35,620 nt of DNA, taken from assembly GCA_027459775.1 (NCBI GenBank), contig DAIDHE010000399.1, positions 1 to 35,620 on the forward strand. The letters are read 5' to 3'. Shown in pieces: positions 13,221 through 35,485 of this stretch. The position numbers and the translations under genes were made by a program. The stretch's first letter is position 1, and each line of letters begins with the position of its first letter. Under the pieces are notes generated by a model. The model saw only the letters and a program-made list of their open reading frames with translations. It was not told the origin of the DNA and searched no databases. Origin of the DNA: Planctomycetales bacterium (GTDB lineage Bacteria > Planctomycetota > Planctomycetia > Isosphaerales > Isosphaeraceae).

Positions 13221-13871
13221 ATGGGAACCCACATGGACAAGATGCCCGGCGACGGCACCGACCCAATCGAGAGCCTTCGGGGCGGAGGCGGCGAGGCGCT
13301 CGCGAAGCTCTTCGCCGAGCACCGAGACCGGCTCAGGCGGATGGTGGAGCTGCGCATCGACGCCCGGCTGCGGTCGCGACTCGATGCGTCGGACGTCCTC
13401 CAGGAGGCGTATCTTGATGTCGCGCGCGACCTCGCCGCCTATTTGGCCGACCCCAAGCTCCCGCCGCTGCTCTGGTTGCGGCTGCACGTCGGCCGGCGTC
13501 TGACGACGCTGCATCGCCATCACCTGGGCACGAAAATGCGCGACGCCGGGCTGGAGATCGCGCTCTATCAGGGCGCATTGCCCGAGGCCAGCTCGGCCGC
13601 GCTGGCCTCGATGCTTCTGGGGCGGCACACGTCCCCGACCCAGGCGGCCGAGCGCGCCGAGCGGCTGCTGCGGGTCCAGGAGGCTCTCAACAGCCTGGAC
13701 CCGATCGACCGGGAGATGCTCGCGCTGCGGCACTTCGAGCATCTGGGCCGGGCCGAGGCGGCCCAGGTGCTGGGAATCACGCAAGAAGCCGGGTCGAAGC
13801 GGTACTTCCGCGCCTTGAAGCGGCTCAAGGACGCACTGGCGAGTCTACCTGGCGGCTGGGAGGGTCTCTGA
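13221..13871 (+). CDS. ECF-type RNA polymerase sigma factor (planctomycete subfamily)
   Basis: A 216-residue sigma-70 family protein with region 2 (about 20-90: LFAEHRDRLRRMVELRID, then LDASDVLQEAYLDVARDL, LLWLRLHVGRRL) and region 4 (about 150-212: ALNSLDPIDREMLALRHFEHL, EAAQVLGITQEAGSKRYFRAL). The RLRSRLDASDVLQEAYLD pattern and the insert between regions 2 and 4 fit the planctomycete-specific sigma subfamily. Such factors direct transcription of a regulon and are often encoded next to Ser/Thr kinases. No anti-sigma factor gene is present; the next gene, 2 nt downstream, is a giant kinase, so control by phosphorylation is the likely mode (inference). Starts at 13221 or at the ATG 13233 (M5) are both possible; neither has a strong ribosome binding site. 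Confidence 0.9.
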   Translation: MGTHMDKMPGDGTDPIESLRGGGGEALAKLFAEHRDRLRRMVELRIDARLRSRLDASDVLQEAYLDVARDLAAYLADPKLPPLLWLRLHVGRRLTTLHRHHLGTKMRDAGLEIALYQGALPEASSAALASMLLGRHTSPTQAAERAERLLRVQEALNSLDPIDREMLALRHFEHLGRAEAAQVLGITQEAGSKRYFRALKRLKDALASLPGGWEGL

Positions 13872-16800: not shown

Positions 16801-19003
16801 CCGATTATCTGATCCCGCGACCGGCCGCCCCTGGGGAAGGCCCGTGGCGCACTACCCTGGTTGGATCGTGAGAGCATTCGCCTTCAGTCCGGACGGCCGC
16901 TGGTTCGCGACCGGGAGCAATCCGCCCCTCGGTAGTCTCGCCAGCGAGGTACGGCTTTGCGACGCGACCACGGGGCGGTTGCTTTTTCCGCCGATCCCGC
17001 ACACCAACTTTGTGTCCGCGCTCGCGTTTCACCCCGGCGGCAAGATCCTGGCCGCCGGCGATTTCAACGGCCTTGTGCGGCTCTGGGATACTTCCACCGG
17101 CAAGGAAATCGGCCGCCCGCTCGCTCAGGGCGAGATCGTGCTCGGTCTCGCCTACAGCCCGGACGGCACGATGCTCGCCGCGGGTCTGTCGGACGACCAT
17201 ACCGGCAAGCCTGGGGTCCGCCTCTGGGATGCCACGACGCGGCAATCGATGGGGGGCTTGATGCCCAGTTCGATCCCGATCGACCGGATCGAGTTCCGCC
17301 CGGATGGTCGAGCCCTTCTCACGGGAAGTCGTGGGTCCGAGGGGTTCAGCAGGCTCTGGGACACGACCCGTTGTCAGGCCCTCTGCGAGCCGATTGTTCA
17401 CGAAGCGCCCGCCGGATTCCGTCCCGACGGTCGCGCCTTTCTCACGCTGGGAAGGGACGGCACGGTCAAGCTCCGCGATGCAACCAACGGAGAGGTTCTC
17501 ACCAGCCTCGTGTCTTCGTTGTCACGGGCGACGTGCGCGGCCTTTCGCGGCGATGGCGGCCTGGTCGCCGCGGGATTCGAGGATGGCTCGGTCCGGCTCT
17601 GCGACCTGGCCGCCGCGCAGCCGGTCGGCCCACCGCGATTTATGAGGCACGGCGTTCATCAAGTCGCATTCACGTCCGACGGCCGGACGGTCGTCGCCAT
17701 CGACGACGAGGGCGAAACCCGCGCCTGGCTCGTTCCCGAGCCGCTGGCCGAATCGAGCATCGACGACTTGACGCTCCGCGTCGAGGCACGAACCGGCCTC
17801 CGTATGAGCAGGAACCTCGCGATCTCGCGGCTGAGCAGCCCTGCCTGGCGCGATCGGCTCGAGCAGCTCTCCCGTCTCGATCCCTCCGCCTTGAGTCTGG
17901 ACGACGATCCCACCTGGCACGAGCCGATGGTCCTCGAGGCCGAGCGGAAGGGCAACGCATTCGCGGCGATCTGGCATCTCGACCGCCTGATCGCCGCCCG
18001 GCCCGACGACTGGCACCTGCGCGCCCGCCGTGCCCGCGCGTGGTCCCTGTCGGACCAGTTCGACAAGGCCGCGGCCGATTACCAACAGGCCGAGCGGCTC
18101 GGCTCGCGGGAGCGGATCCTCGACTTCCAGACGCACTGCGTCACCGACAGCACCAGGGCCGATCGCTGGGCCGAGGCTCTCTGGTATCTCGACCGCCTGC
18201 TCGCCGCCCGGCCCGACGACCGGCTGCTTCACGAGGAACGCGCCGCCGTCCACGGCAAGCTCGGCCGCGAGGCCGACCGCCAGGCCGAGCTCGCCCGCGT
18301 CTTCGAGCTAGGCGCCGACAAGGGACTCGTCATGCCACGGGCCGAAGAGCTTGGCAAGGCCGGCCGCTGGGCCGAGGCCGCGGGCCTGCTCGCACGCTGC
18401 GGCCGGACTGACCCGCTCAGCCGAGAGCTGGCCCAGGCCTGGGGCGTCGCCTGCCTGAAGGCGGGCGACCACGCCGGCTATCGCGAGGCCTGCGCGGCGT
18501 TCTTGGCCTGCCAGGGACCGGACCCGACGGTCGTCTGGAACGCCTTCAGCGCCGCCTCGCTTCTCTCCCTGGGCCCCCAGAGCCTCGATGATTACCACAT
18601 CACGATGCATTGGTTCGAGAGCCGGCTCTCCGCCACTCCCGCGCCATCACCGGTGTACCGGCATCTGCACTCGGTCGCTCTGGGCGGGATCCTGCTTCGC
18701 GCTGGCCGGATCGACGAGGCAATCCTTCGAATGCACGCGGGAATGGCCGTCGGGAAGGAGGCCGAAGGGCCTGGCGATTGGGCCTACGTGGCCCTGGCCC
18801 ACGCGCGCAAGGGGAACCTCAAGGACGCGCGCCGGTGGCTCGATCGCCTTCGCGGTTTCACGTCGCATCCTGATCCGCGGACGACCTTCTGGGATCTCCA
18901 GGAGCTCGCCCTCCTCCAGAGCGAGGCCGAGTCGCTGCTCCTCGACGCCGGGTTCCCGAATGATCCCTTTCATGCCCCGGCGCAGCCTGATTCGGTTCGT
19001 TGA
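13874..19003 (+). CDS. Giant membrane-anchored Ser/Thr protein kinase with WD40-like and TPR repeats
   Basis: A 1709-residue Hanks-type kinase. Residues 83-480 form the kinase: glycine loop GRGGMG (90-95), lysine K112 in VALKIL, catalytic HRDIKPSN (334-341), DFGLAK (354-359) and the MAPERF activation segment (378-383). All key residues are present. Between the hinge (MQLIQGQGLDQ) and helix E there is an insertion of about 130 low-complexity residues (175-308). One TM helix (about 495-517) follows, then a charged segment and roughly 15 WD40-like blades (about 620-1290; FSPDGK and VRLWD motifs) which could make two propellers, and a TPR-like C-terminus (about 1310-1700). By topology the kinase would be cytoplasmic and the repeats outside the cytoplasmic membrane. 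It starts 2 nt after the sigma gene with GGAGGG upstream, so the two are co-expressed and probably form one signalling unit. Confidence 0.93.
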   Translation: MSMFSSSRDYGRFDELAQEFAERFRRGERPSLQEYVDRLPEMADEIREMFPAMVEVERADGDARGDWVSPPPLAPHLSQIGDYQILREVGRGGMGVVYEAEQISLGRRVALKILPAHVTGDRRALERFHREAKAAARLHHTNIVPVFEVGRDRDVSFYAMQLIQGQGLDQVIDELQRLRDPGRIANANAATSPESLDPPETGSHARRAASAILKKRDLTRMAESLLGGRMPADGLGSPATGSLAIDLPAERGFVATERFDLEAASSQEPGLTVGDHPPSAPGSASISSAVLPGGKHVSEVDTTGRRQPFFRSVAQIGRQAAQGLAHAHSRGIIHRDIKPSNLLLDTDGVVWITDFGLAKADEDGLTASGDLLGTLRYMAPERFRGVGDARADVYALGLTLYELLTLRPAYESTDRLKLIEKVKNEEPVRPRSIDSRIPRDLETIVLKAIEKEPGARYASADALAEDLRRFLADEPIKARQVSTTERYWRWARRNPAIAVLGGVLTAVLVAVSIGSLSAATYFRGLAESERLAKLRSQFDNKTAIDAQKQAIRERDRSGRLSAGLALEKGIALAEEGHADRGLMWMLEALKSAPESAEGFRKVARWNLGAWLGQVHKTVRILDLSGRPKSAYLDFSPDGKSFATASNALDQSIATPIELWETASGRRLASFPAAFAPFAFGPDGKILVANAGNRGRLVAVDLATGRVRWTSSELPGDWSGGFAFSPDGSTVLAPRGDDQHNWWLFRLDLATGRPRGEPVRGRAGMAVAPDGGTAATGRFENEELFIDLLDLPSGRRRASWRAGGQGIFMLSLSPDGKSLFEGSTFVDRANVRGLRGSGRILDIDLGRPTGSLMTGVTSACYNPAGDRVLTVNDGLRQLRDAANGRVLGSGFHEEFMGGPFHSEGRLVLSVSNNTVRLLQVSADAEPVSDGGPAKYEPVPGIKSNNKFRGSFAIWAGLRADGRIAVSLAEDAGGRERIRLSDPATGRPWGRPVAHYPGWIVRAFAFSPDGRWFATGSNPPLGSLASEVRLCDATTGRLLFPPIPHTNFVSALAFHPGGKILAAGDFNGLVRLWDTSTGKEIGRPLAQGEIVLGLAYSPDGTMLAAGLSDDHTGKPGVRLWDATTRQSMGGLMPSSIPIDRIEFRPDGRALLTGSRGSEGFSRLWDTTRCQALCEPIVHEAPAGFRPDGRAFLTLGRDGTVKLRDATNGEVLTSLVSSLSRATCAAFRGDGGLVAAGFEDGSVRLCDLAAAQPVGPPRFMRHGVHQVAFTSDGRTVVAIDDEGETRAWLVPEPLAESSIDDLTLRVEARTGLRMSRNLAISRLSSPAWRDRLEQLSRLDPSALSLDDDPTWHEPMVLEAERKGNAFAAIWHLDRLIAARPDDWHLRARRARAWSLSDQFDKAAADYQQAERLGSRERILDFQTHCVTDSTRADRWAEALWYLDRLLAARPDDRLLHEERAAVHGKLGREADRQAELARVFELGADKGLVMPRAEELGKAGRWAEAAGLLARCGRTDPLSRELAQAWGVACLKAGDHAGYREACAAFLACQGPDPTVVWNAFSAASLLSLGPQSLDDYHITMHWFESRLSATPAPSPVYRHLHSVALGGILLRAGRIDEAILRMHAGMAVGKEAEGPGDWAYVALAHARKGNLKDARRWLDRLRGFTSHPDPRTTFWDLQELALLQSEAESLLLDAGFPNDPFHAPAQPDSVR

Positions 19004-23046: not shown

Positions 23047-24135
23047 TCAACCCGGCGATTTGTGTTTGGGTTTCTCGGGTGCGGGGTGGTGTTCGCCGTA
23101 GGCGGGCTCGGGGACGGTCTTGAGCAGTTTCTCGATGATCTTGTCGGCGTCGACCCCTTCGGCGTCGGCGTTGAAATTGGTGAAGACGCGGTGTCGCAAG
23201 ACGGGTCGAGCGACGGCGCGGATGTCGGACGCGGCGACGGCCAGGCGGCCGTGCAAGACCGCGCGGGCCTTGGCGGCGAGGATCAGATACTGCGCGGCCC
23301 GCGGGCCAGCCCCCCATGCCAGCCACTCCTTGATGAACGGCGGCGACTCGGGCTCGGCGGGCCGGGTCGCGCGCGCCAGGTCGACGGCGTAGTCGACCAT
23401 GTGGTCGCTCGCCGGGATCTCGCGCACCAGGTGCTGGATCGCCAGCAGATCCCGCCCCTTGAGCACCGGGTGGATTTCCTCGGGCTTCGCCTGGGTCGTG
23501 GCGATCACGATTCTGCGCTCTTCGTCGCGGGTCGGGTAGCCGATGTGGATCGAGAGCATGAACCGGTCGAGCTGGGCCTCGGGGAGCGGGTACGTCCCCT
23601 CTTGCTCGATCGGGTTCTGCGTCGCCATCACGAAAAAGGGCTGCTCGAGCTCGTAGGTCTTGGTCCCCGCGCTGACCTGGAATTCCTGCATCGCCTGCAA
23701 CAGGGCCGCCTGGGTCTTGGGCGGGGTGCGATTGATCTCGTCGGCCAGGACGATGTTGGCGAAGATCGGCCCTTGCAAGAACCGGAACGTCCGCTTGCCG
23801 GTGGCCGCGTCCTCCTCGATGATCTCGGTGCCGGTGATGTCGCTGGGCATCAGGTCGGGCGTGAACTGGACGCGACTGAACTTGAGATGGAGCGCCTTCG
23901 CGAGCGTCGAAATCGTGAGCGTCTTGGCCAGCCCCGGCACGCCGATGGTCAGGCAATGGCCGCGCGCAAACAGACAGATGAGCATTTGCTCGATCATTTC
24001 ATCCTGGCCGATGATGACCTTGTGGATCTCGCGCCTGAGCAGCTCGTCGGCCTTGCGCACCCACTGGATGGCGTCCTCGGGGCTCATGCGTTCCTTTTCC
24101 CGTTCTTTCTCGGCGGCGTGGGGCGTTGCGTTCAT
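23047..24135 (-). CDS. moxR: MoxR-family AAA+ ATPase
   Basis: A 362-residue cytoplasmic AAA+ ATPase of the MoxR/RavA class, which works with VWA proteins as a chaperone to assemble or activate target complexes. Walker A is GVPGLAKT (65-72), Walker B NIVLADE (127-133), sensor 1 ATQNP (171-175), with the family's PSDITGTE (97-104) and PLPEAQLDRF (183-192). The C-terminal lid follows. There is an unusually charged N-terminus (EKEREKER, 9-16). It is 42 nt after the BatA-like gene and 32 nt before the PA14/PKD gene on the same strand. Confidence 0.95.
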   Translation of the reverse strand: MNATPHAAEKEREKERMSPEDAIQWVRKADELLRREIHKVIIGQDEMIEQMLICLFARGHCLTIGVPGLAKTLTISTLAKALHLKFSRVQFTPDLMPSDITGTEIIEEDAATGKRTFRFLQGPIFANIVLADEINRTPPKTQAALLQAMQEFQVSAGTKTYELEQPFFVMATQNPIEQEGTYPLPEAQLDRFMLSIHIGYPTRDEERRIVIATTQAKPEEIHPVLKGRDLLAIQHLVREIPASDHMVDYAVDLARATRPAEPESPPFIKEWLAWGAGPRAAQYLILAAKARAVLHGRLAVAASDIRAVARPVLRHRVFTNFNADAEGVDADKIIEKLLKTVPEPAYGEHHPAPEKPKHKSPG

Positions 24136-24177: not shown

Positions 24178-26469
24178 TCAGAGCTTGGACAAATACTCCA
24201 TGACGTCGTCGACGGGCGGCGCGGCGGCCGCGGCCCGGGTCGTGGGCGCTGGGGTCGCGGCCTGGGGGGCTTGCGCGGAAGCGTCGACCGCCGCATCGGC
24301 CGTTCGGGCGGCCTTGCGATTGGCGAGAAACGCCTCGAACACCAGCAGGACGAGCACGGCCGCGAGCAGGCCCTCCCAGAGATTCGTCCCCTCGCGAAGC
24401 TGGTGGATCGCGCGGGCGAGATCCTCGGGCCGCTCGCAGTAGACCAGCGCATGGGGTTTGAACCGGGCCTCGAGCTCGTCTCGGCTCAGGGTGGCGGGAT
24501 CGGATTCGCTGGGGTCGACGTTCACCGCGAGGGCCACGTTCCGCTCGGCCCGCGGCCCGGCGCCGCCGCGAAGGTGAAAGACATAGACACCGGCGTCGTG
24601 GGTGTCGGCATAGCGCAGCGCCCCGCCGTCGGCTTCTTGCGGGCGGATGCGGATCTGCTCGCCCGAGGGGCGGACGATCTCGACCTCCTTGGCCCGCGCT
24701 GGCCCCGCGCCGAGCGGGATCACGGCCGGGCTGCCGGCCAGGACCGGCGGCCGGTCGGCCTCAGCGCCCGCCAGGTGGAACGTCAGCCGCGCGAACAGCG
24801 GCAGGAAGAGCGGCTTCAAGGGAAGATTGGTCCACGGCGACGCGACGCCGGTTCCCAGGAGCAACACCGACCCCTCCCCGACCTTGAGCTCGACCATGAG
24901 CGGCTGCCCCTGATCGAGCCGGGCGAGCACCCGGCCCGCCGACCGCGGACCCCACTTCAGCGGCACATATTGATAGATTTGCACGGAACGATAGAGCGAC
25001 GCCGGCTCGGTGAGCGGGGCGAACGGGGGGTAGTCCTTGTCGAGGAATCCGATCGGCGTTCCGTCGCCCTGGGCGTTGGCGGTTTTCTGGGCGGGTTCGA
25101 GCGGGGCGGGGAGGAGCTCGCCTTGTTCGAGCAGGTTCATGGCGTTGTAGGCGTCGGGCTCGACATTGTCGCCGCAGATCCAGACCAGCCGGCCGCCGCC
25201 GTGGACGTACGAGCGCAGCCGGGCCGCCAGCTCGGCGGCGGGGGCGGGAAGATTGACGGCGTAGACGACCGCAAATTCGCCGAGCGACCGGGCGCCCCGC
25301 GGGCCGTTGCCCGCGGCTTCGTCGGGCGTCATCGAAACCACCCGGACCGCGCCCGCCCCTGGCGAATCGGGCGCGAGTGCGCGCTCGAGATAGAACGAAT
25401 CCTCGGCGTAGGGGATCTCCTCGCGCCGGGGCTTGATCACGGCCACCGGGATTTGCTGGTCGACCGAGAGGGCGAAAAACAGCCGGTTGTCGAGCGGCGA
25501 GGCGTCGTCCTCCGTCAGCCGGACCTCGCCCTTGTGCACGCCTCCCCGGTCCGGAACCAGGCGAAACTCATGGCGGACCGTGCCCCCGGCCGGCACGCTC
25601 AGCGTCGGGCTCACCGCTTGCTTGACGCCGTCGAGGTCGAGCTCGACGTGCTTTTGCTGGGGCGCCGGCGATGCACTCCGAACCTCGACCGAGACCCGCA
25701 CCGGCACGCCCGTCGCCGGGGCCGGGCTTTGCAGGCGGATCTCCTGGAGCGCCGCATTGAGCATGGGATCGCCGCGGACATTGACCACGACCACGGGCGC
25801 TTCTCCCTTTCTCGGACCGGTCGCCCCGTCGTCGTCCGCTTTCGCCTTGAGCCCTTCCCAGCCGACCGCCTGGTTCTCGGTGACCACGTAGATCTCCTTC
25901 ACGGCCGAGTCCGCCTGGTCCAGAAGCTTGCGGGCCTCGAGCAGCCGGGCGGCAAGATCGGCCCGCTCGTAACTGGGCTTGGCCTGCTCGAGCGCCTGGC
26001 GGACGGCCTCGTGCGAATGCTGGAGCCGCCCCAGCGCGCGGTCGGGCGGACCGCCCGTAAAGAGCAGCGCGACCGGATCGCCCTCGGCGTGCGTGGCCAG
26101 GATCTGCTCGGCCGCCCGGCGGGCCGTCTCGAACCGCGGATGGTCCTGGTCGGTCTGGCCCATGCTCGCCGAATTGTCGACCACGATCGCGAGCGCCACA
26201 CCCTTGCCGCCGCCGGCAAGCGCACGCAGCCCCGACACCGCCGGCCGCGCCAGCCCCAGCGCGACCAACACCAGCGCGGCCACCCGCGCCGCCAGCAACA
26301 GCGCGTCGTCGACGTATTTGCGCCGCCGCGTCTTCCGCACCGAGAGCCGCAGGAATCGCAGCGTGCTGAACCGGATCTCCTTGGCCTTTTGCCGGTGGAT
26401 CAAATGGATCACCACGGGCGCCAGCCCGGCGAGCGCGGCCAACAAGAATAAGGGAGCACCGAAGGTCAT
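24178..26469 (-). CDS. BatA-like membrane protein with VWA domain
   Basis: A 763-residue protein. Residues 1-75 are the BatA/aerotolerance N-terminal unit: a TM helix (about 5-24), HLIHRQKAKEIRFSTLRFLR (22-41), then a second TM helix (about 56-74). A VWA domain follows with a MIDAS motif DNSASM (98-103). The middle is beta-rich and periplasmic by topology, and also contains a DUF-like segment around 430-600. A single TM helix (about 695-715, WEGLLAAVLVLLVFEAFLANR) near the C-terminus leaves a short Ala/Pro/Thr-rich tail. The ATG overlaps the stop of the DUF58 gene (ATGA at 26466-26469), giving translational coupling, as expected of partners in one complex with MoxR. Confidence 0.88.
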   Translation of the reverse strand: MTFGAPLFLLAALAGLAPVVIHLIHRQKAKEIRFSTLRFLRLSVRKTRRRKYVDDALLLAARVAALVLVALGLARPAVSGLRALAGGGKGVALAIVVDNSASMGQTDQDHPRFETARRAAEQILATHAEGDPVALLFTGGPPDRALGRLQHSHEAVRQALEQAKPSYERADLAARLLEARKLLDQADSAVKEIYVVTENQAVGWEGLKAKADDDGATGPRKGEAPVVVVNVRGDPMLNAALQEIRLQSPAPATGVPVRVSVEVRSASPAPQQKHVELDLDGVKQAVSPTLSVPAGGTVRHEFRLVPDRGGVHKGEVRLTEDDASPLDNRLFFALSVDQQIPVAVIKPRREEIPYAEDSFYLERALAPDSPGAGAVRVVSMTPDEAAGNGPRGARSLGEFAVVYAVNLPAPAAELAARLRSYVHGGGRLVWICGDNVEPDAYNAMNLLEQGELLPAPLEPAQKTANAQGDGTPIGFLDKDYPPFAPLTEPASLYRSVQIYQYVPLKWGPRSAGRVLARLDQGQPLMVELKVGEGSVLLLGTGVASPWTNLPLKPLFLPLFARLTFHLAGAEADRPPVLAGSPAVIPLGAGPARAKEVEIVRPSGEQIRIRPQEADGGALRYADTHDAGVYVFHLRGGAGPRAERNVALAVNVDPSESDPATLSRDELEARFKPHALVYCERPEDLARAIHQLREGTNLWEGLLAAVLVLLVFEAFLANRKAARTADAAVDASAQAPQAATPAPTTRAAAAAPPVDDVMEYLSKL

Positions 26470-27365
26470 GGGCCGGCCCGTTTCTCCAGATAGCGCGCCA
26501 GGGCCCTGTCATAAGGCTCGGTGGTTTCCATCAGGACATGGTCGATCCGACATTGTGCGCACACGCCGCGGCAGCGGTCGAGGAACTCGGCGAACCGCGC
26601 GCGGTAGTCGTCGCGGACGTAGCTCGGATCGACCTGGATCGTTTCGCCCGTCTCGACGTCGTGAAACGTGGCCGTCTCGCGGTAGGGGAACTCGATCTCG
26701 GCGCGGTCGAGCACCTGAAACACGATCAGCTCGTGGCGCTTGTGGCGGAGGTGATGAAAGGCCGACGCGAGGGCGTCGGGATCGTCGTAGAGATCGCTCA
26801 AGAGGACGATCAAGCTCCGCCGCTTGAACCGGTCGGCGAGCCGGTGCAAGGTCGCGGAGAGGGCGGTCGTCTTGCCCGGCCGGACCGCCTCGAGCTGCTT
26901 CATCATCTCGTCAAAATGCCGCGGCGAACCGCCGGCGGGCAGGTCGAGCCGGATCTTGTCGTCAAAGGTCGTCAGCCCCACGGCGTCTTGCTGTTTCATC
27001 ATCAGATAGGCAAGAACCGCCGCGAGGAACGACGCGTATTCGAGCTTGGTCCGCCCGCCCGGCGCGCCCGCGAACGCCATCGACGCGCTCGCGTCGAGCA
27101 CGATCTGGGCGCGAAGATTGGTCTCTTCCTCGTACTGTTTGAGATAGAGCCGGTCGGTGCGGCCCAGGACGCGCCAATCGAGGTAGCGAAGATTGTCGCC
27201 GGCGACGTATTTGCGATGCTCGGCGAATTCGACGCTGAAGCCCTTGTAGGGGCTCGAGTGCAGGCCGGCGATGAAGCCCTCGACGACCCCGCGCGAGGCG
27301 AGGCCCAGGTTGCGAACCCGCGCGAGGGCGGCCGGCTCCAGATACCGATAACCACGCCCTTTCAT
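26466..27365 (-). CDS. DUF58 protein (VWA-like partner of MoxR)
   Basis: A 299-residue protein. The start is the ATG at 27365, which overlaps the TGA of the upstream VWA gene as ATGA; a 26-codon longer frame reads into that gene. The DUF58 signature is plain: GLHSSPYKGFSVEFAEHRKY, AGDNLRYLDWRVLGRTDRLY (56-74), then a VWA-like MIDAS DASASM (91-96). DUF58 proteins are usually encoded next to MoxR ATPases and are thought to recruit them to clients. There is no TM helix, so it should be cytoplasmic. It ends by overlapping the BatA-like gene by 4 nt. Confidence 0.93.
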   Translation of the reverse strand: MKGRGYRYLEPAALARVRNLGLASRGVVEGFIAGLHSSPYKGFSVEFAEHRKYVAGDNLRYLDWRVLGRTDRLYLKQYEEETNLRAQIVLDASASMAFAGAPGGRTKLEYASFLAAVLAYLMMKQQDAVGLTTFDDKIRLDLPAGGSPRHFDEMMKQLEAVRPGKTTALSATLHRLADRFKRRSLIVLLSDLYDDPDALASAFHHLRHKRHELIVFQVLDRAEIEFPYRETATFHDVETGETIQVDPSYVRDDYRARFAEFLDRCRGVCAQCRIDHVLMETTEPYDRALARYLEKRAGP

Positions 27366-29617
27366 CGCAGTTGATACCTCTTGCGCAGGGTCCACTCGGC
27401 GGTGAGGGCGGCCGCGAACAGCCCCCAGTAGGGGACGGGCCACGAGAGCGGCTGCTCGAGCGCGACCCGTGATCGCCGCTCGCGGCGGTCGAGCTCGTCG
27501 ATCAGACTGTCGGCCGTGCTGAGATGACGATACCGCCCCCCCGCGGCCGACGCGATCTGGGTCAGGGTCGCGTCGTCCAGGTCGAGCCGGTCGTACTCGA
27601 GATTCGGGCGGCCGACGTCGAACGGGGTCGTGACCGCATGGAGCACGGTCTTGCCCAGGGTCGCGTCGACGAAGACCTTGTACGTGCCCGACCGCTTGGG
27701 CGCAAAGGTCCCCGAATAGCGCCCGGCCGCGGCGGGATCGGGCGTGAGCGTGACCGTCTCGGGAGCGCCCGCGGACCCTTGAACCCGCGCGGCCACCTCG
27801 GCATTCGCGGTCCCTTCGCCCTCCTGATCGCGGACCACGGCCACGATCACCGCCGGGGCGTTGGGCTCGTAATACGCCTTGTCGGTGTGCGCCAGCACGC
27901 CGGCCTCGGCCTTCACGGCCTCGGTCCGATTGGCCAGCCAGCGCACCGTTTGGCCCCAGAACCGCGAAAACGGCGACTCCTGGTCGAGCGCCTTGGGCGC
28001 TTGCTGCCAGTTCCGGGTCGTGTCGCCGGTGAAGACCATCGCGCGCCCCTTGCCAAACGGCTGCACGGCCACCACCGGCATGGGCGCGCTCCCCGCGCGC
28101 TCGGCCGCGTTCACCGCCAGGACCGTCGCCCCCGGCTTCGCCCCCGTCACCCGCACGCAGCCCTCGAGCGGCGGCAGGCCAGGCGCCTGCGCGGGGCCGG
28201 CGGTCGTCGGAAAGAACTTGGCGATGTTCGCCATGATCGGGTGCGAACGTCCGTCCGGCGTGAGCGTCGGCACGAACGGCTCGGTCGCCTGGGCCGACTC
28301 GCGCTTGCCGACGAAGACCGGCAACGCCTCTTCAAGAGGCGTGCCGCCATAGCCGCCCGGGCCGAGGCTGTGATAGCCCCCCATCATGAGCAGCCCAGCG
28401 CCCTCCCGCACCCGCTTCACGAGCGCCGCCATCGAGCCGGGCTTCCAGTACGAGCTGTCCAGGTCGCCCAGCACGATCACGTCGAACCGGTCGAGCACCG
28501 CCGGGTCGGACGGGATCCCGGCGAGTTTCAGCCCCTCGATATTCGTGCGCTCGAGAAAGACGCCAGGTCGCGTTTGCACGAGCGCGCAAAACTCGAGGTC
28601 GGGATCCTTCGAGAGAAACCGCTGCACGATCGCGCCATATTCGGCCCGCAGGGTTCCCTCGAGATAAAGCACGCGGATATGCGAATCGACCACCTGCGTG
28701 ACGGCCGCGCGGTGGTTGTTCTCGGTGATGCGTTCGCCAGGGACCGCCGGCACGCGAACGGTGTAGGTGTGCCGCCCCTTGACCGTGGGCACGATCTCGA
28801 ACGCCACGTCCTGGACCACCCCGTCGCCACGCAGCTCGACCTGGGCCTGCTTGATCGGCTTGTCGTTCTCTTCGAGCGCGACCGTGACGATCTGGCCGGC
28901 GAGCCCCGACTGGCCGATGTGGGCCGTGATGTGGGCGCGGTTGTCGACGGGGAGCTGCTCGGGGCATTCGAGGCCGGCCAGGCGGACGTCGCGGAATCCG
29001 GGTCCGTCGCGGAGGCTGTCGCCGACCCCGATCGTGTGCACCACCCGGCCCAGCGTGGCCGCCAGCGCGACGGGGTTGCCGGCCGCGTTGTGGACGCCGT
29101 CCGAAAACAGGAAGATCGCCGCGACGTCGCGGGCCGGGACCGCCCCCGCCGCGGCCGCCAGCGCACGCGAAAGCGACGTCGCCCGCCCGTCGGGCTTGAT
29201 CCGGGCCAGGTCGCCCGCGCGCTCGAGCGGCGTCGCCCCCTCGTCGAAGCTCATGAGTCGCACGTCGAAATCCCGCGCCAGCTTGCCCGACCACTCGAGC
29301 ACCCGCACCCGCTCTTGATCAAACCGCGACATCCCGGTCGCCTGGTCGGCCGTCGCCATCGACGCCGAGGCGTCCACCAGCATGATCACGCTTCGCCGCC
29401 GGGTCTCTTCCTTCTCCATCGAGAGCACCGGCCTGAAGATCAGCAGCACGACCACGACGATCGCCAGGGCCCGCAGCCCGAACAAGGTCCGCCAGCGGCC
29501 CGCCGTGAGCCGGCGAAACGCCCCACGGTAAAACGCCCACGCCAGCGCGAGCGAGCCCGCCAGGACCGCGAACATGGTCCCGACGCTGTACCCCGGCTCG
29601 AGGCTCAAATGAATCAC
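27362..29617 (-). CDS. Membrane VWA protein with glutamine-amidotransferase-like domain
   Basis: A 751-residue protein. Two N-terminal TM helices (about 14-31 and 48-63) precede a VWA domain with MIDAS DASASM (82-87) and a further SFDEGATPL/TSLSRAL element. The central part (about 318-430: IRVLYLEGTLRAEYGAIV, FDVIVLGDLDSSYW, GAGLLMMGGYHSLGPGGY) resembles the class-I glutamine-amidotransferase-like fold seen in 'DUF1355/glutamine amidotransferase' VWA proteins of MoxR clusters, but no catalytic Cys triad is visible, so it is likely non-enzymatic. A beta-sandwich (about 580-680) and a terminal TM helix (about 727-745) follow. The start is a GTG at 29617; the ATG at 29575 is an alternative. The TGA overlaps the DUF58 ATG. 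Confidence 0.85.
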   Translation of the reverse strand: MIHLSLEPGYSVGTMFAVLAGSLALAWAFYRGAFRRLTAGRWRTLFGLRALAIVVVVLLIFRPVLSMEKEETRRRSVIMLVDASASMATADQATGMSRFDQERVRVLEWSGKLARDFDVRLMSFDEGATPLERAGDLARIKPDGRATSLSRALAAAAGAVPARDVAAIFLFSDGVHNAAGNPVALAATLGRVVHTIGVGDSLRDGPGFRDVRLAGLECPEQLPVDNRAHITAHIGQSGLAGQIVTVALEENDKPIKQAQVELRGDGVVQDVAFEIVPTVKGRHTYTVRVPAVPGERITENNHRAAVTQVVDSHIRVLYLEGTLRAEYGAIVQRFLSKDPDLEFCALVQTRPGVFLERTNIEGLKLAGIPSDPAVLDRFDVIVLGDLDSSYWKPGSMAALVKRVREGAGLLMMGGYHSLGPGGYGGTPLEEALPVFVGKRESAQATEPFVPTLTPDGRSHPIMANIAKFFPTTAGPAQAPGLPPLEGCVRVTGAKPGATVLAVNAAERAGSAPMPVVAVQPFGKGRAMVFTGDTTRNWQQAPKALDQESPFSRFWGQTVRWLANRTEAVKAEAGVLAHTDKAYYEPNAPAVIVAVVRDQEGEGTANAEVAARVQGSAGAPETVTLTPDPAAAGRYSGTFAPKRSGTYKVFVDATLGKTVLHAVTTPFDVGRPNLEYDRLDLDDATLTQIASAAGGRYRHLSTADSLIDELDRRERRSRVALEQPLSWPVPYWGLFAAALTAEWTLRKRYQLR

Positions 29618-29644: not shown

Positions 29645-30301
29645 TCATCCTCGCCGGCCCTTCGACTTCTCCGTCCGGGCCTTCTGCTTCCGCCTGGCCT
29701 CACTCACCGCCTGCTCGCCCACCCCGATCGCGCGGACATACACGAGCGCCTTGAGCGCCATCCCCGCCGGCCCCTTGTCGCGCTTGTGAAGCACGTACTT
29801 CTCGGCCTCGCCTCCCCCCTCGGGCGCCACGTACACCAGCGCCGACATCGGCCCCCGCAGCGTCCGCCCGTCACGCAGCGTGATCGTATGAATGTATTCA
29901 CGCGAGGGATACGAACGCCCGGTGAAAACCTTTTCATCATTGGCGTTTTCCTTGAACCGCCATTCGGGCTCGAGCCATTCGCGCTCGACCGTCCCTTCCA
30001 CCTTGCGAATCGCCGCGAGCGGAACCTCGCGCTGCCGCTCGGTCTTCGCATCGTAAATCTTGAGCCGGGCGTCCCGGGTCAGGTAAACCCGCCCCAGCCG
30101 GATCGCGCCGTCGGAAAGCTCGACGTAGCCCGGCAGCGAATCGTCGCGCGCCTGGGCCTTCGCCGCCGGCTCGAACGGGTTCAATTCCGCCGGATCTTGA
30201 CCCGCGATCGACAGCCCCGCCCCCAGCGAGGCGAAGATCAGACCCGCGGCCAAGCTCACGGCCCACCGCTTCCACGTCGACCCAACTGGCTCGTCCATCA
30301 T
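29645..30301 (-). CDS. Exported protein of unknown function heading the MoxR arm
   Basis: A 218-residue protein with a signal or anchor segment (about 12-34, RWAVSLAAGLIFASLGAGLSIAG would-be helix). The body is beta-rich (LPGYVELSDGAIRLGRVYLT, REVPLAAIRKVEGTVERE, EYIHTITLRDGRTLRGPMSA) and the C-terminus is strongly basic (ARRKQKARTEKSKGRRG). I do not recognise a named family; the 'LSDG..R.GRVYLT' and 'TLRDG..L.G..S' strands look like short SH3- or Lsm-like modules common in planctomycete exported proteins. Either of two adjacent ATGs (30301, 30298) can serve; GAGGG is 4-7 nt upstream. It is first in the leftward arm, 27 nt before the VWA gene. Confidence 0.72.
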   Translation of the reverse strand: MMDEPVGSTWKRWAVSLAAGLIFASLGAGLSIAGQDPAELNPFEPAAKAQARDDSLPGYVELSDGAIRLGRVYLTRDARLKIYDAKTERQREVPLAAIRKVEGTVEREWLEPEWRFKENANDEKVFTGRSYPSREYIHTITLRDGRTLRGPMSALVYVAPEGGGEAEKYVLHKRDKGPAGMALKALVYVRAIGVGEQAVSEARRKQKARTEKSKGRRG

Positions 30302-30480: not shown

Positions 30481-32064
30481 ATGTCGGGAACAGACGAGGG
30501 GTCGGGCGGCGGGTTGTCGCGCCGGGGTTTTCTGGAGGGGTCGGCCTGGGCCTACTGGTCGGCGGCGGGCGCGGCCGGGAGCGTCTTGCTCCCCGAGATT
30601 GCGCGGGCGCGAGCCGACGATGCCGCTTCCGGCCCGGTGGACTGCGGGCCGCCGCCCCAGGCGAAACCCCAGAGCCGGACCGGCGGCGAGTCGTTTCCAC
30701 CGCTGCCCCTCCCGGCCACGCCCCTGCGGCGGACCGAAAAGAAACGGCCGCCCGCCCCGCCCCCGTTGATCGGCAAGATGGCCTTGGGCCGCGTGCGGTT
30801 CATTCGCAAGGGCAACGAACGCGTCCAGTACCGCGACTGGATGACCGACCCCGCCGACGTCGACAGCCTGCTCAACTGGACCAACACCAAGCTGGGCATC
30901 CATTACGGCAAGGCCGAGGTCGATTTCGACCACTTCTCGTTCGACCCCCGCGAGGTGCCCGCCTTGCTCTTCGCCGGGCACAACGCCTTCACCCTCGACG
31001 ATCGCGTGCGCGGGCAGCTCGCCCGCTACGTGCTCGACGGCGGCACGATCATCGGCGACGCCTGCTGCGGCTGGAAGGATTTCAACAACGCTTTCCGCCG
31101 CGAAATCGCGGCGATCTTCCCCAACCGCCCGCTCCGCAAGCTCACCCCGGACGAGCCCCTGCTGTCAGCCTATTACAAGCTGGGCGACTTCACCTACCAG
31201 AAGGCCGACGGCTCGAAATACCAGGCCGAGCCCTGTCTCGAAGGCATCGGCTTCGGTTGCCGCACCGGCGTGATCTATTCCCCCGCCGACCTGACCTGCG
31301 GCTGGGACGGACACGACCACCCCCGCGGCCTTCGCGTCGTCATCGATCAGGCCCGCCAGATCGGCGCGAACTACGTGACGTACGTGCTAGGCAGCTATCA
31401 GCTCGGCCGGTTCCTGAGCACGACCAAGGTCTACCACGAAGCCTCCGCGCCCGCCCGCGACGACTTCATCTTCGCCCAGATCATCCACGAGGGAGACTGG
31501 GATCCCGACCCCTCGGCCGTGCACAACCTGCTCAAGTACGTCCGCGACAACTCGACCTTGACCATCAAATTCAAGCGCGTGGATGTGAAGCTCACCGACC
31601 CCGGGGCCATGAACTATCCCCTGCTTTACATCACCGGCCATCACGACTTTCGCTGGTCGAAGGCCGAGGCCGAGTGGCTCAGGCGCTACCTGACCGCCGG
31701 CGGCATGCTGCTCGCCGACGCCTGCTGCGGCCGAGCCGCGTTCCATCTGGCCTTCGAGCGCGAAATCGCCCAGGTTCTTCCCGAAAGCCGCCTCGAGGAC
31801 ATCCCGCTCGACCACCCGCTCTATCACGCCCACCACGACATCGGCCGGGTCTCGTACACCCCGCGGGTCGCCGAGGACTTTGGCGCGCTCTCCGCCCCCA
31901 GCCTCAAGGGTATCACGCTCGACGGCCGCCTGGCCGTCGTCTACAGCCGCTTTGACCTGGGCAACGGCTGGGAACAATTTCCCCACCCCTACGCCTATGG
32001 CTACAGCGAGAAAGACGCCCTCGCCATCGGCGCCAACGTGATCGTCACGGCGGTCACGCACTGA
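30481..32064 (+). CDS. Tat-exported protein with two tandem DUF4159 domains
   Basis: A 527-residue protein starting at ATG 30481; a longer open frame from 30328 lacks a ribosome site and would place coding sequence over the promoter. Residues 13-45 are a twin-arginine signal (SRRGFLEG, then a hydrophobic run ending ARARA). A proline-rich linker (about 56-98) is followed by two DUF4159 domains, about 101-310 and 325-527. Each has an opening RV.F.R or FIFAQIIHEGDWDPDP strand, PALLFAGHN or PLLYITGHH, and an identical DACCG motif (193-197 and 413-417) followed by an FxxAFxREIA helix. DUF4159 proteins are encoded in MoxR/DUF58 clusters and resemble glutamine-amidotransferase-like domains; the repeated DACCG may be the active or metal-binding site (inference). 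It is co-directional with the 1133-residue protein 20 nt downstream. Confidence 0.88.
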   Translation: MSGTDEGSGGGLSRRGFLEGSAWAYWSAAGAAGSVLLPEIARARADDAASGPVDCGPPPQAKPQSRTGGESFPPLPLPATPLRRTEKKRPPAPPPLIGKMALGRVRFIRKGNERVQYRDWMTDPADVDSLLNWTNTKLGIHYGKAEVDFDHFSFDPREVPALLFAGHNAFTLDDRVRGQLARYVLDGGTIIGDACCGWKDFNNAFRREIAAIFPNRPLRKLTPDEPLLSAYYKLGDFTYQKADGSKYQAEPCLEGIGFGCRTGVIYSPADLTCGWDGHDHPRGLRVVIDQARQIGANYVTYVLGSYQLGRFLSTTKVYHEASAPARDDFIFAQIIHEGDWDPDPSAVHNLLKYVRDNSTLTIKFKRVDVKLTDPGAMNYPLLYITGHHDFRWSKAEAEWLRRYLTAGGMLLADACCGRAAFHLAFEREIAQVLPESRLEDIPLDHPLYHAHHDIGRVSYTPRVAEDFGALSAPSLKGITLDGRLAVVYSRFDLGNGWEQFPHPYAYGYSEKDALAIGANVIVTAVTH

Positions 32065-32083: not shown

Positions 32084-35000
32084 ATGACCTCGCAAGCCGA
32101 CGAAGTGATCGCACGACTCGAACGGGCGCGCCAGGGCTGGTGGCGTTATTCCATGGTTTCGGGCCTGGTGCTGGCCAGCGCCTTCGCCCTGGCGGCCTTC
32201 GCGGCGCTCGCCTTGATCGACGCCCTGTTCGGCCTATCCCAGCGCGGGCTGCTCGTGCTCCTGGTCGGCTGGGCGCTGCTCACCGCCGCGGCCCTGCTCA
32301 TGCTGATCGGGCGGATGCGCCGCTGCCGGCGAAACCTCTCCGCGACGGCCCGCCGGGTCGAGCTCGAGATGCCCGAGCTCGAAAGCCATCTGATCAACCT
32401 CGTCCAGTTCTCCTCGAGCGCGACCTCCCCGAGCCCGAATGGCGCTGTCGGCGACCCGTTTCGCCAGGCCGCGATCCACGCGGCCGCGTCGGCGATGACC
32501 GACGCACCCTTTGAACGGGCCGCCACGCCCCGCTCGCGGCGCCGTCGTTTCGCGCTCGGCTTGCAAACCCCCCGCGACGCGCTCGAGGCCCTGGCGATCC
32601 TCGCGGCGGTCGCCCTCGTCACCGCCGTGCTCGCCGCCGCCGTACCCACCTGGGCCTCGGCCACTCGCCGGCTCGCGCACCCCTGGGCCTTCATCCCCAC
32701 CACCGGCTCGGTCAAGATCCTCAAGGTCGACCCGGGCGACACCGAGGTGCTCGTGGGCTCGGGCCTGGAAGTCTCGGCCCAGGTCGACATGGCCGCGCAC
32801 AAGAATCCCACCGCGACCCTCTTCGTCCGCCCCAAGGGCTCGACCGCGCCCGAATCGGCCGTGCGAATGCTCCCCGACGCCAGCCGTCGCACGTTCATCG
32901 CAGCGCTTGCGCAGGTCGTCGGCCCGATGGAGTACCGGCTCCAGGTGGGCGACTCGCAAACCCGGCGCTACGCCGTCGGCGTCTACGAGCGGCCCACGGT
33001 CTCGGCCGTGGAAGCGACCTATGAATTCCCCGCCTACATCGGCCGGCCCAATCAGACGCTCACCCAGACCCACGCCGATCTGGAAGCGCCCGAATACACC
33101 CGAGCCGCGCTCAAGATCACCCCGTCGACGCCGATCGCCTCGGGCCGGCTCGAGATCGGCGGAAAGATGATCCCAGCACGCGTCGGCGAGGGCGGCCGCG
33201 CGCTCTTCGCGGAACTCTTGCTCAAGGAATCGACGACCTACACGATCCACCTGGTCACCCCGTCGGGCCACGTCGACGCCCAACCCCGGCTCAACCGCGT
33301 GACGGTCGTCAAGGACGCCCCGCCGACCATCCAGCTCGCCGAGCCCGGCCGCGACGCAAGCTCCGCCGCCGGCGCGAAGGTCGCGATCGTCGCGCGCGCC
33401 GGCGACGACCATGGCCTGAGCGAGGTCCGCTTCGAAATCCAAACCGGCGGCGACGAAAACGCCGATCGAGCGACCAAAGGCGGCCATGAGACCTCGGCAT
33501 CGGCCGCGGCGACGACCCTCGCGCGCTGGACGACCTTCGCCGATCCCTCCTCCGCGACCCTCGTTCGCGAGCTCGCGCTCGATCCGGCCAAATTCAAGCC
33601 GGGCCAAGCGGTGCTCGTCCGCGCGGTCGCGCGCGACGGCCGGGCGCTCCAGATCGCCGGCCTGACCCTGACGCCGCAAGAAACCGCCACGCCCTGGCAT
33701 CGCATCCGCGTGATCGCGACCGAGGCCCAATCCGCCGCCGACCTCGCCCGGCTCGACGCGCTCCGCGCGGGCGTGCTCCGCCTGCTCGAGCAACAGGTCC
33801 GCGCGCGGGTCGCGGCCGCCCAGGCGGCCAAGGCCCCCGTCCGCGACGACGCCACCAGGCTCGCCGCCCAATCCCTCCGCGGCCAGACCGACGTCCAGAA
33901 AAGCGCCGTCGCCCTCGTCGAGTCGATCGGACCAGACGCCCTCGAGGAAGCCCGAACCGTCAAGCGCGTCGTCAACAAACTGGCCTATGAAGACATGCTC
34001 ACCGCCGTCAAACAGGCCGAGACCCTCGCCCGCGTCGAGACCTCGGCCCCGCTCGACAAGCCGGCGGCCGAGCTGGCGCTCACCCAGAACCGCGTCATCG
34101 ACGTCCTCCGCAGGCTGCTGGGCGCGCTCGGCAAGGAAACCGCCGACCTGCTCGCCGACCTCAAGAAAAAGCCGAGCACCGAGCTGCCCCAGGACGTCAA
34201 GGACAAGCTCCGCCAGCTCAAGGCAAAACTGGACGAGTTCCTCAAACAGCAAAAGAAAGTGATCGAGGCCACCGAAAACCTCGCCAAGACCCCGGTCGAC
34301 GACTTCACCGAAAAGGAAAAACAGATCCTCAAGGATCTGGCCGCCGCCGAGGACGATTGGGCCAGATTCATGGCCGACAAGCATTCAGACCTGAGCAAGC
34401 TTCCCGAGCAAGATTTCTCGAACCCGAGCGCGCTCAAGGAGCTGCTCGACGTCCAGACCGAGCTCAAGATGGCCAAGGACGCCTTGACCAAGAAGACGGC
34501 CGAGATCGCCGTCCCGCTCGAACAGCTCGGCGCCGAGATGGCCAAGGAAATCACGACGAACATCGAAAAATGGCTGCCCGATACCCCCGACCGCGAGCGC
34601 TGGAAACAGGAAGAACCGCTCACCGACGCGATGAAGGAAGCCCCGATGGCCGAGCTCCCCAAGGAGCTCGAGGACATCGTCGGCAAGCTCATGGAAGAGG
34701 AAGAGGATCTCTTTGACGAGATGGAGGACGTCTCGAGCAGTGGGACCGACTCGCTCGACAAGGGCTCGGGCTGGGACGCGATGGACGGTCCGATCTCGAA
34801 CATGAGCGCCCGCGGCGTGACGGGCAACCGGCTGCCGAACACGAGCGAGATTTCGGGCCGGAGCGGCGAGGGCCGGTCGGGCAAGGCGACCGGCGAGTTC
34901 GTCGCCGACACGGCAACGGGCAAGGGGGGTCGAAAGACGCCCAGCCGGCTGACGAACGACCCCAACGTCAAGGGTCAGGTGAAGGATCTGAGCAAGGATC

Positions 35001-35485
35001 CCGTCGGGGGCGCGACCGGCGGCGGCAAGGAATCAGGCCAGGGCGGCGAGGGGCTCCGCGGACCCGTCCCCAACCGTCCCCAGCGCCCGCTTGCCCGGCT
35101 CGCCGCCAAACAGGCGTCGCTCCGGAACAAGGCGGAAGCCGTCGACCTCAAGTTCCAGGTGCTGAAATACCACCACACCGACCTCAAGAAGTTGATCGGC
35201 CAGATGGCCGCCGTCGAGGACGACCTCCGGTCGGGCCGCTATCGCAACGCCCTGCGCAGGCGCGAAGTGTTGCTTGACGGCCTGGGCCAGGCCAAGATGG
35301 CCGTCCGCGGCGAGTCGATCATCCGCCAGGACCAGACCGCCAACCTGCCGGCCGCGATCCAGAAAGAGATCTTGGGCACCATGAAGGAGGCTTCCCCCGA
35401 AGGCTGGGACGAGCTCAACAGGCGCTATTTCGAACGGCTCTCGACCGCCAAGCCCGCGCCCAGCAGCGTCGCGCCGCCGCACTGA
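32084..35485 (+). CDS. DUF4175-like membrane protein with long coiled coil
   Basis: A 1133-residue protein; GAGGCGG lies a few bases before the ATG. There are three TM helices (about 24-46, 54-76 and 167-188), a layout like DUF4175 proteins of MoxR/DUF4159 clusters. Beta-rich periplasmic domains (about 205-415; VDPGDTEVLVGSGLEVSAQV, ATYEFPAYIGRPNQTL) follow. Residues about 540-880 are strongly helical and charged (KKPSTELPQDVKDKLRQLKA, KQKKVIEATENLAKT) and should form a long coiled coil. The tail (about 900-1020) is Gly/Ser/Lys-rich and disordered, ending with a last helical segment. No enzymatic motif was seen, and the family has no known activity. The stop codon is 8 nt from the end of the IS5-type transposase, so the natural C-terminus may have been altered by insertion. 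Confidence 0.83.
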   Translation: MTSQADEVIARLERARQGWWRYSMVSGLVLASAFALAAFAALALIDALFGLSQRGLLVLLVGWALLTAAALLMLIGRMRRCRRNLSATARRVELEMPELESHLINLVQFSSSATSPSPNGAVGDPFRQAAIHAAASAMTDAPFERAATPRSRRRRFALGLQTPRDALEALAILAAVALVTAVLAAAVPTWASATRRLAHPWAFIPTTGSVKILKVDPGDTEVLVGSGLEVSAQVDMAAHKNPTATLFVRPKGSTAPESAVRMLPDASRRTFIAALAQVVGPMEYRLQVGDSQTRRYAVGVYERPTVSAVEATYEFPAYIGRPNQTLTQTHADLEAPEYTRAALKITPSTPIASGRLEIGGKMIPARVGEGGRALFAELLLKESTTYTIHLVTPSGHVDAQPRLNRVTVVKDAPPTIQLAEPGRDASSAAGAKVAIVARAGDDHGLSEVRFEIQTGGDENADRATKGGHETSASAAATTLARWTTFADPSSATLVRELALDPAKFKPGQAVLVRAVARDGRALQIAGLTLTPQETATPWHRIRVIATEAQSAADLARLDALRAGVLRLLEQQVRARVAAAQAAKAPVRDDATRLAAQSLRGQTDVQKSAVALVESIGPDALEEARTVKRVVNKLAYEDMLTAVKQAETLARVETSAPLDKPAAELALTQNRVIDVLRRLLGALGKETADLLADLKKKPSTELPQDVKDKLRQLKAKLDEFLKQQKKVIEATENLAKTPVDDFTEKEKQILKDLAAAEDDWARFMADKHSDLSKLPEQDFSNPSALKELLDVQTELKMAKDALTKKTAEIAVPLEQLGAEMAKEITTNIEKWLPDTPDRERWKQEEPLTDAMKEAPMAELPKELEDIVGKLMEEEEDLFDEMEDVSSSGTDSLDKGSGWDAMDGPISNMSARGVTGNRLPNTSEISGRSGEGRSGKATGEFVADTATGKGGRKTPSRLTNDPNVKGQVKDLSKDPVGGATGGGKESGQGGEGLRGPVPNRPQRPLARLAAKQASLRNKAEAVDLKFQVLKYHHTDLKKLIGQMAAVEDDLRSGRYRNALRRREVLLDGLGQAKMAVRGESIIRQDQTANLPAAIQKEILGTMKEASPEGWDELNRRYFERLSTAKPAPSSVAPPH

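What the first reader, a model, noticed from the sequence alone, without database searches (positions are those of the whole stretch)
30481..32064. Tat-exported protein with duplicated DUF4159 and a repeated DACCG motif
The two halves are clearly homologous but diverged, and each keeps an identical DACCG at residues 193-197 and 413-417. In many clusters DUF4159 is fused to a BatA-like membrane anchor; here it is free and sent folded through the Tat route, hinting that it binds a cofactor or metal in the cytoplasm. The vicinal cysteines could bind metal.
Basis: partly seen in the sequence, partly recalled or inferred. Interest (0 to 1): 0.5.

Follow-up and report, generated by a model that had tools for sequence, protein, structure and literature searches.

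The report
Exported twin-domain protein with paired cysteines
A probably secreted planctomycete protein of unknown function carries two copies of one fold, and each copy has a small cluster of cysteines and histidine that evolution tends to keep or drop together, which points to a metal-binding or thiol-active site in each half.

Summary
In detail: 527 residues, two DUF4159 domains (34% identical), DACCG at 193-197 and 413-417, and an SRRGFL signal. The paired cysteines are not family-wide (relatives have DDFWG, DDCIG, DAACG) but mark a short, exported two-domain subfamily of Planctomycetota. They belong to a set. In 286 unique domains, Cys-Cys occurs with a His at 167/387 in 177 and without it in 7; that His occurs without Cys-Cys in 6. 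On a tree they change together in about 9 of 11 independent pairs, oppositely in none on average. Asp123/343 and His280/502 follow more weakly. The predicted fold is glutamine-amidotransferase-like. I infer one metal (or thiol) site per domain; neither metal nor geometry is shown. Tat export is weak support: eight relatives keep both sites without a twin-arginine. Also found: a near-invariant PPLPLPxTPLRRxE peptide before domain 1, diagnostic of the subfamily; partial linkage to MoxR/DUF58/BatA-vWA genes; and a 218-residue protein in exactly the 5 of 59 genomes with a close orthologue. Two searches of open-access papers named no DUF4159 work.

The parts
30481..32064 (+). gene of the 527-residue exported protein with two DUF4159 domains
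   Evidence: translation; PF13709 twice
30517..30534 (+). SRRGFL, twin-arginine motif of a Tat-type signal (residues 13-18); signal about residues 1-45
   Evidence: sequence; TatC in the genome; 49 of 72 relatives counted have an RR-type motif
30682..30765 (+). conserved proline-rich peptide GGESFPPLPLPATPLRRTEKKRPPAPPP (residues 68-95) between signal and domain 1
   Evidence: 75 of 76 relatives' N-termini carry it; a DNA pattern blind to DUF4159 hit 34 places in 33 of 294 genomes, reversed pattern 0; 28 of 30 fetched hits lie in frame with DUF4159 domains
30820..31389 (+). DUF4159 domain 1 (residues 114-303)
31474..32052 (+). DUF4159 domain 2 (residues 332-524)
31057..31071 (+). DACCG of domain 1 (193-197)
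31717..31731 (+). DACCG of domain 2 (413-417)
30847..30849 (+). Asp123, possible site residue of domain 1 (weaker coupling)
30979..30981 (+). His167, predicted site residue of domain 1
31312..31320 (+). His278-x-His280, possible site residues of domain 1 (weaker coupling)
31507..31509 (+). Asp343, possible site residue of domain 2
31639..31641 (+). His387, predicted site residue of domain 2
31984..31986 (+). His502, possible site residue of domain 2
29645..30301 (-). 218-residue protein with a hydrophobic N-terminus (read from sequence), divergent neighbour, co-occurring
   Evidence: same 5 of 59 genomes as the close orthologues; found in 19 of 67 loci with 1.5 kb upstream
27362..29617 (-). 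vWA + GATase1_like protein
26466..27443 (-). DUF58 protein with a DxSxS motif (DASAS)
   Evidence: sequence
24178..26469 (-). BatA/vWA protein with a DxSxS motif (DNSAS)
   Evidence: sequence
23047..24135 (-). MoxR-type AAA+ ATPase (AAA_3)
32084..35485 (+). 1133-residue protein directly downstream, no Pfam match
   Evidence: a homologue is present in 21 of 52 loci with 3.5 kb downstream

Best explanation
An exported tandem protein of amidotransferase-like (GATase1) fold that belongs, at least in many genomes, with a MoxR/vWA (Bat-type) gene cluster. Each DUF4159 domain holds its own site in loops after the strands of the sheet, made of His167/387 and the vicinal Cys pair 195-196/415-416, probably with Asp123/343 and His280/502 (and His278 in domain 1). 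The most likely use of such a set is to bind one transition-metal ion per domain. The proline-rich peptide behind the signal is a flexible tether that docks a partner. Shown: domains, fold class, co-evolution of His with the Cys pair, the peptide, partial gene linkage. Inferred: that the residues meet in space, that Asp and the second His belong, that they bind metal, that the peptide binds a partner.
For: Cys-Cys and His in 286 unique domains: 177 both, 7 Cys-Cys only, 6 His only, 96 neither. Of 17,391 column pairs, 167-195 and 167-196 rank 2nd and 3rd by corrected mutual information, 123-167 7th. On a tree built without the site columns, 11 independent pairs that differ in Cys-Cys: His167 same way 9.1, opposite 0.0, median p 0.004; controls Tyr142 1.0/1.6 and Asp193 3.3/1.9, p 1. 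Short doublets, domain 1, with the H-C-C set: Asp123 in 83 of 87 rows, His278 81, His280 83; without it 3, 4 and 8 of 24 (rows not freed of duplicates). Model pLDDT 89.8, pTM 0.86; His167 and Cys195 directly follow model strands 64-69 and 92-97. Fold: 4i66 Z 23.0 over 179 residues, rmsd 2.1; HisH 7ac8 Z 11.1 over 151, 3.5; ThuA-like 1t0b Z 9.5 over 164, 3.6, all on domain 2. ThuA profile match E 9e-6, probability 83%. Neighbourhood.
Against: No coordinates, so distances were not measured. Asp123 (5.2/0.1, median p 0.0625) and His280 (4.0/0.1, p 0.125) alone do not reach 0.05. The strongest coupled pair of all is another one, 202-266. Losses are few and partly one clade (the Phycisphaerae rows). 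The second Cys of domain 1 stays in 13 of 24 rows that lack the set. The only solved DUF4159-like structure found, 4i66, has DSAEG at the motif and is silent on metal. The MoxR/DUF58/BatA/vWA genes are seen in only 9 of 24 loci with 8 kb on both sides. Eight relatives keep both sites without a twin-arginine. A Cys-His set could equally be catalytic.
Confidence: 0.45

Rival explanations
1. Thiol enzyme: a Cys of DACCG is a catalytic nucleophile in a GATase1/ThuA-type fold and His167 (or His280) its base; the other Cys tunes or protects it.
For: The Cys pair follows a strand of a fold matched by HisH and ThuA-like proteins, and the ThuA profile alignment puts DACC opposite a conserved IH..CA stretch; that this is the nucleophile-elbow place is recalled. 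Cys-His co-evolution.
Against: Both cysteines couple to the His about equally (7.9 and 7.4 sd), and in most domains with the His both are present (177 of 183); a single nucleophile would leave one free to vary. The amidotransferase profile did not align (probability about 1%).
Confidence: 0.25
2. Vicinal disulphide or redox switch: outside the cytoplasm the Cys pair forms a strained disulphide that opens on reduction and signals to the vWA/MoxR partners.
For: Adjacent cysteines in an exported protein; the two tend to go together (Cys195 against Cys196: same way 4.9 of 11, opposite 0.0, median p 0.0625).
Against: Does not explain why a His, and more weakly an Asp and a second His, go with them.
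Confidence: 0.13
3. Structural residues only: the set is a packing core that changes together because of clade history.
For: Few independent changes (11 pairs on supported branches); where the set is lost the replacements are mostly non-ligands such as Trp, Leu, Arg, Pro for His.
Against: Other conserved residues of domain 1 (Cys260, Arg261, Cys273, Trp275) stay in 21, 24, 22 and 21 of 24 rows without the set; controls Tyr142 and Asp193 show no coupling.
Confidence: 0.15

Closest known systems
DUF4159 family (Pfam PF13709)
   Same: Both domains score over the family cut-off
   Different: Most single-domain members seen (chosen as best-scoring hits) have DDFWG or DDC(I/L/V)G at the motif; here DACCG in both domains plus the PPLPLP peptide
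4i66, Hoch_4089 of Haliangium ochraceum (solved structure; no paper found)
   Same: Z 23.0, 179 residues, rmsd 2.1, 29% identity to domain 2
   Different: Chain of about 200 residues, DSAEG in place of DACCG and Asp in place of His387 by the alignment
ThuA (PF06283) and class I glutamine amidotransferases (PF00117)
   Same: Fold class; ThuA profile alignment at 83% probability over 105-106 columns
   Different: No profile match to PF00117; the His plus Cys-Cys set is not part of those profiles as far as seen
Long DUF4159 doublets of Planctomycetota (own genome contigs C114, C450)
   Same: Two DUF4159 domains; the C450 copy lies near MoxR, DUF58 and BatA homologues
   Different: 767 and 854 residues with a weak toroid-type N-terminal match, DAACG in domain 2, no PPLPLP peptide (0 of 27 long doublets)
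NorQ/NorD-type MoxR-vWA metal insertion (PMC13036017; abstract and introduction read)
   Same: A MoxR ATPase with vWA proteins near a candidate metalloprotein
   Different: Here client and cofactor are unknown and the candidate is exported; gene linkage only

Membership tests
DUF4159 (PF13709) | profile score over the curated cut-off | tested here: met
   234.4 bits against 25.9, two stretches; 148.2 and 91.5 bits for the two domains
GATase1-like fold | fold similarity to HisH, ThuA and relatives | tested here: met
   Domain 2: 4i66 Z 23.0; HisH 7ac8 Z 11.1 over 151 residues, rmsd 3.5; ThuA-like 1t0b Z 9.5. Domain 1 was not searched alone; it is 34% identical to domain 2
class I glutamine amidotransferase (enzyme) | profile match to PF00117 | tested here: inconclusive
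   local HH alignment probability 1.2-1.4% with 30 planctomycete sequences
class I glutamine amidotransferase (enzyme) | Cys-His-Glu catalytic triad in place | not testable with these tools
   no coordinates are given out
ThuA (PF06283) | profile relationship | tested here: inconclusive
   HH probability 83%, E 9e-6 over 105-106 columns; the Pfam scan names DUF4159 only
Tat substrate | twin-arginine motif; Tat system present | tested here: met
   SRRGFL; TatC in genome; no signal predictor run and export itself not tested
metalloprotein | bound metal | not testable with these tools
   co-evolution only
MoxR-vWA client | physical or genetic dependence on MoxR/vWA | not testable with these tools
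   gene linkage in 9 of 24 loci with 8 kb on both sides

The most novel reading that the evidence does not exclude
A new class of exported metalloprotein, with an Asp-His-Cys-Cys-His site in each of two amidotransferase-fold domains, matured by a MoxR/vWA insertion machine of the NorQ/NorD kind and recruited to it through a conserved PPLPLPxTPLRRxE peptide.
Probability: 0.15. Interest if true: 0.8.

Novelty: new variant of a known kind. Interest (0 to 1): 0.5.

Why it matters
DUF4159 has no assigned function in Pfam, and two searches of the held open-access library found no paper that names it, PF13709, Hoch_4089 or 4I66. The work here makes the family testable: a His plus Cys-Cys set per domain with two weaker candidates, a peptide that marks the subfamily and is not packed on the domains in the model, and a short list of linked genes. 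If the site binds metal, the Bat-type MoxR/vWA clusters of Planctomycetota would gain a plausible client, which bears on what such clusters do.

Tried and rejected
Shared site formed by the Cys pairs of both domains: weakened, since one domain can lose its set alone; not measured in space. Tat export as evidence for cytoplasmic cofactor loading: set aside. Cys260 and Cys273 of domain 1 as ligands: set aside, as they stay in 21 and 22 of 24 rows without the set; a disulphide between them is possible, untested. Packing of the peptide on the domains: residues 61-85 have pLDDT under 50 in the second model, rising after residue 90; low pLDDT is not proof of disorder. Other proteins with the peptide: in 59 relatives the eight best hits (E 2e-11 or better) are all DUF4159 doublets and the next is at E 0.0035. 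Viral structure library: no match at E 0.001 or better. NCBIfam: nothing for the protein, the 218-residue, the 1133-residue and the vWA-GATase1 proteins; MoxR, DUF58 and BatA were not scanned there. PF00117 profile: no alignment. The vWA-GATase1 protein as a specific co-occurring partner: homologues are in 59 of 59 relatives, so it is not specific. A first regular expression for the peptide was wrong and found 1 of 76; corrected. VIA-align rows cover mostly domain 2.

Rows dropped and biases: A2 (76 rows) leaves out L151, L153, L155, L156 and L171 of the 80 loci as split, frame-broken or cut; A3 (73 rows) also leaves out L130, L140 and L165. The 286 domains are those of at least 150 residues after removal of identical ones, out of 331 rows. 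In one search, 16 duplicate and 7 incomplete doublets were left out of the doublet table, but the per-residue rows (111 per domain) were not freed of duplicates; 'long' means that domain 1 starts after residue 300 of the open frame, which misplaces L166. The 80 loci were fetched with a pattern over residues 333-342, so invariance there is biased; the pattern holds no site residue other than that stretch, but the best 80 of 161 were kept by similarity to the window protein, which favours close relatives with the set. The single-domain proteins are best-scoring hits, and that table has repeated loci. Part of the output was cut; its headline rows for Cys260, Cys273, Trp275 and for His167 with Asp123 were not seen.

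Full report
What is there. The gene at 30481-32064 (+) encodes 527 residues: a twin-arginine signal (SRRGFL at 13-18), a proline-rich stretch (about residues 55-95) and two DUF4159 domains at about 114-303 and 332-524. DACCG is at 193-197 and 413-417; the halves are 34% identical over 188 columns, E 3e-30.

How widespread. The own genome has two more proteins with two DUF4159 domains, on contigs C114 and C450. DUF4159 was found in 88 of 246 sampled genomes of the phylum, the own one included. Close orthologues of the window protein are patchy: of 59 genomes searched (own included), G250 (75%), G276 (76-79%, in two pieces), G167 (71%) and G284 (64%) have one; three more have a distant one (G261 and G275 39%, G290 35%); the two other genomes of the same genus, both drafts, show none. 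A collection scan with a pattern outside the Cys motif gave 161 relatives, of which the best 80 were kept: 79 with planctomycete record titles and one Hydrogenedentota (L179).

The Cys motif. In a table of 110 ORFs (some repeated), many short two-domain proteins have DACCG or a close variant in both domains; long doublets often have DACC(G/S) in domain 1 and DAACG in domain 2; the single-domain proteins seen mostly have DDFWG or DDC(I/L/V)G. In the 76-row alignment Cys195 is kept in 63, Cys196 in 73, Cys415 and Cys416 in 63 each, His167 in 62, His387 in 63. The cysteines are a subfamily trait, not a family trait.

They belong to a set. Over 286 unique domains: Cys-Cys with His at 167/387 177, Cys-Cys without it 7, His without Cys-Cys 6, neither 96. 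Among 17,391 column pairs the strongest is 202-266 (9.9 sd); 167-195 (7.9) and 167-196 (7.4) come second and third, 123-167 seventh (6.2), and 280 is the next partner of 167 (3.9). A tree was built without the site columns. In 11 independent pairs on supported branches that differ in Cys-Cys, His167 goes the same way in 9.1 on average and the other way in 0.0, median p 0.004; Asp123 5.2 against 0.1 (median p 0.0625) and His280 4.0 against 0.1 (0.125), neither significant alone; controls Tyr142 1.0 against 1.6 and Asp193 3.3 against 1.9, p 1 (part of that output was cut). In short doublets with the H-C-C set in domain 1, Asp123 is present in 83 of 87 rows, His278 in 81, His280 in 83; without the set in 3, 4 and 8 of 24. 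Cys260, Arg261, Cys273 and Trp275 stay in 21, 24, 22 and 21 of those 24, and the second Cys of the motif stays in 13. In domain 2 with the set Asp343 is present in 72 of 89 and His502 in 73; without it in 4 and 3 of 22 (these rows include duplicates).

One site per domain. Distinct complete short doublets: both 70, none 19, domain 1 only 3, domain 2 only 3; long doublets: domain 1 only 17, none 8, both 2, domain 2 only 1 (the last is L166, a short protein placed there by its long open frame). Sets can be lost singly, which speaks against one composite site.

Fold. AlphaFold on A2 gave pLDDT 89.8 and pTM 0.86. Foldseek has only 4i66 at or below E 0.001 (1.1e-11). VIA-align: 4i66 Z 23.0 (179 residues, rmsd 2.1), HisH 7ac8 Z 11.1 (151, 3.5), then IFT52, homoserine succinyltransferase and ThuA-like proteins near Z 9.5-10, nearly all on domain 2. 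In the model (full number minus 97) His167 directly follows strand 64-69, Cys195-196 strand 92-97, Asp123 comes after strand 16-20, and His278/280 after strand 164-170 and a short helix: all lie in loops after strands. From general knowledge of this fold such loops lie on one edge, where amidotransferases carry the nucleophile; that the residues meet here is inference, since no coordinates are given out. A profile alignment with 29 ThuA sequences (E 9e-6, probability 83%) sets the Asp of DACCG against a ThuA His and its second Cys against a ThuA Cys, with a two-residue gap between; 30 PF00117 sequences did not align.

The peptide. GGES-PPLPLP(A/V)TPLRR(T/S)E(K/R)KRxPxPP stands in 75 of 76 N-termini long enough to tell; the exception, L165, has its upstream frame broken (the same contig, by its length, appears as L289 with the peptide in a separate frame). 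Eleven of the 33 invariant columns of the 73-row alignment fall in it. In the HMM-selected set it is in 36 of 39 short doublets, 0 of 27 long doublets, 1 of 35 short and 0 of 1 long ORFs with one domain. A DNA pattern for it hit 34 places in 33 of 294 genomes, the reversed pattern none; 28 of the 30 fetched hits lie in frame with DUF4159, and the other two are a contig end (L276) and the broken frame (L289). In the second model residues 61-85 have pLDDT under 50. Invariant yet apparently unpacked suggests a partner-binding peptide; the partner is unknown.

Export. Of 72 relatives with both data, 49 have an RR-type motif (48 with both sites, 1 with none); 23 do not (8 both sites, 11 none, 1 domain 1 only, 3 domain 2 only) (a regular expression, not a trained predictor). 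Site and RR signal go together in the sample, which may only follow clades, and 8 proteins have both sites without RR.

Neighbours. Upstream on the other strand lie the 218-residue protein, vWA-GATase1_like, DUF58, BatA-vWA, MoxR and a PKD/TPR protein; downstream the 1133-residue protein. By tblastn at 1e-8 with the window's proteins, 29 of 80 loci hold at least one of MoxR, DUF58, BatA or vWA-GATase1; with 8 kb on both sides 9 of 24. The own genome has 11 MoxR-type hits in 6.4 Mb, so a random 20-kb stretch would hold one in roughly 3% of cases (my arithmetic). The 218-residue protein is found in 5 of 59 genomes, exactly those with a doublet of 64% identity or more and not in the three with a distant doublet; in G167 it lies far from the doublet, next to the vWA-GATase1 gene. 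The vWA-GATase1 protein itself has homologues in all 59. The vWA proteins and DUF58 keep DxSxS. MoxR-vWA pairs insert metal into nitric oxide reductase (PMC13036017, abstract and introduction read), which makes a metalloprotein client a reasonable guess and no more.

Literature. DUF4159 and PF13709, Hoch_4089 and 4I66 gave no paper in the held open-access library; most subscription papers are not in it.

Verdict. Real, conserved in its subfamily, and not described in what I could search. The evidence favours a His plus Cys-Cys set per domain, probably with an Asp and a second His. Metal binding is the most likely reading at 0.45; thiol catalysis follows at 0.25. Interest 0.5.

Noticed in passing
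29645-30301 (-): 218-residue protein without a Pfam or NCBIfam match, present in exactly the same 5 of 59 relative genomes as the close orthologues of the finding's protein, in one of them at a distant place.
   Followed up: partly
30682-30765 (+): Near-invariant proline-rich peptide after the signal, unpacked in the model, found in frame with DUF4159 in 28 of 30 pattern hits.
   Followed up: yes
L007:2921-5482 (-), L008:1920-4220 (-): Long paralogues in the same genome have a weak terpene-cyclase/TED-type toroid match before their two DUF4159 domains.
   Followed up: no
13874-19003 (+) and 13221-13871 (+): Ser/Thr kinase with WD40 repeats next to an ECF-type sigma factor.
   Followed up: no
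445-1524 (+): Rhomboid-family protein.
   Followed up: no
L165 and L289: Orthologue whose peptide and domains lie in different frames, either a sequencing error or a broken gene.
   Followed up: no
window columns 202/422 and 266/488: The strongest co-varying column pair of the DUF4159 domains lies outside the Cys site and is unexplained.
   Followed up: no
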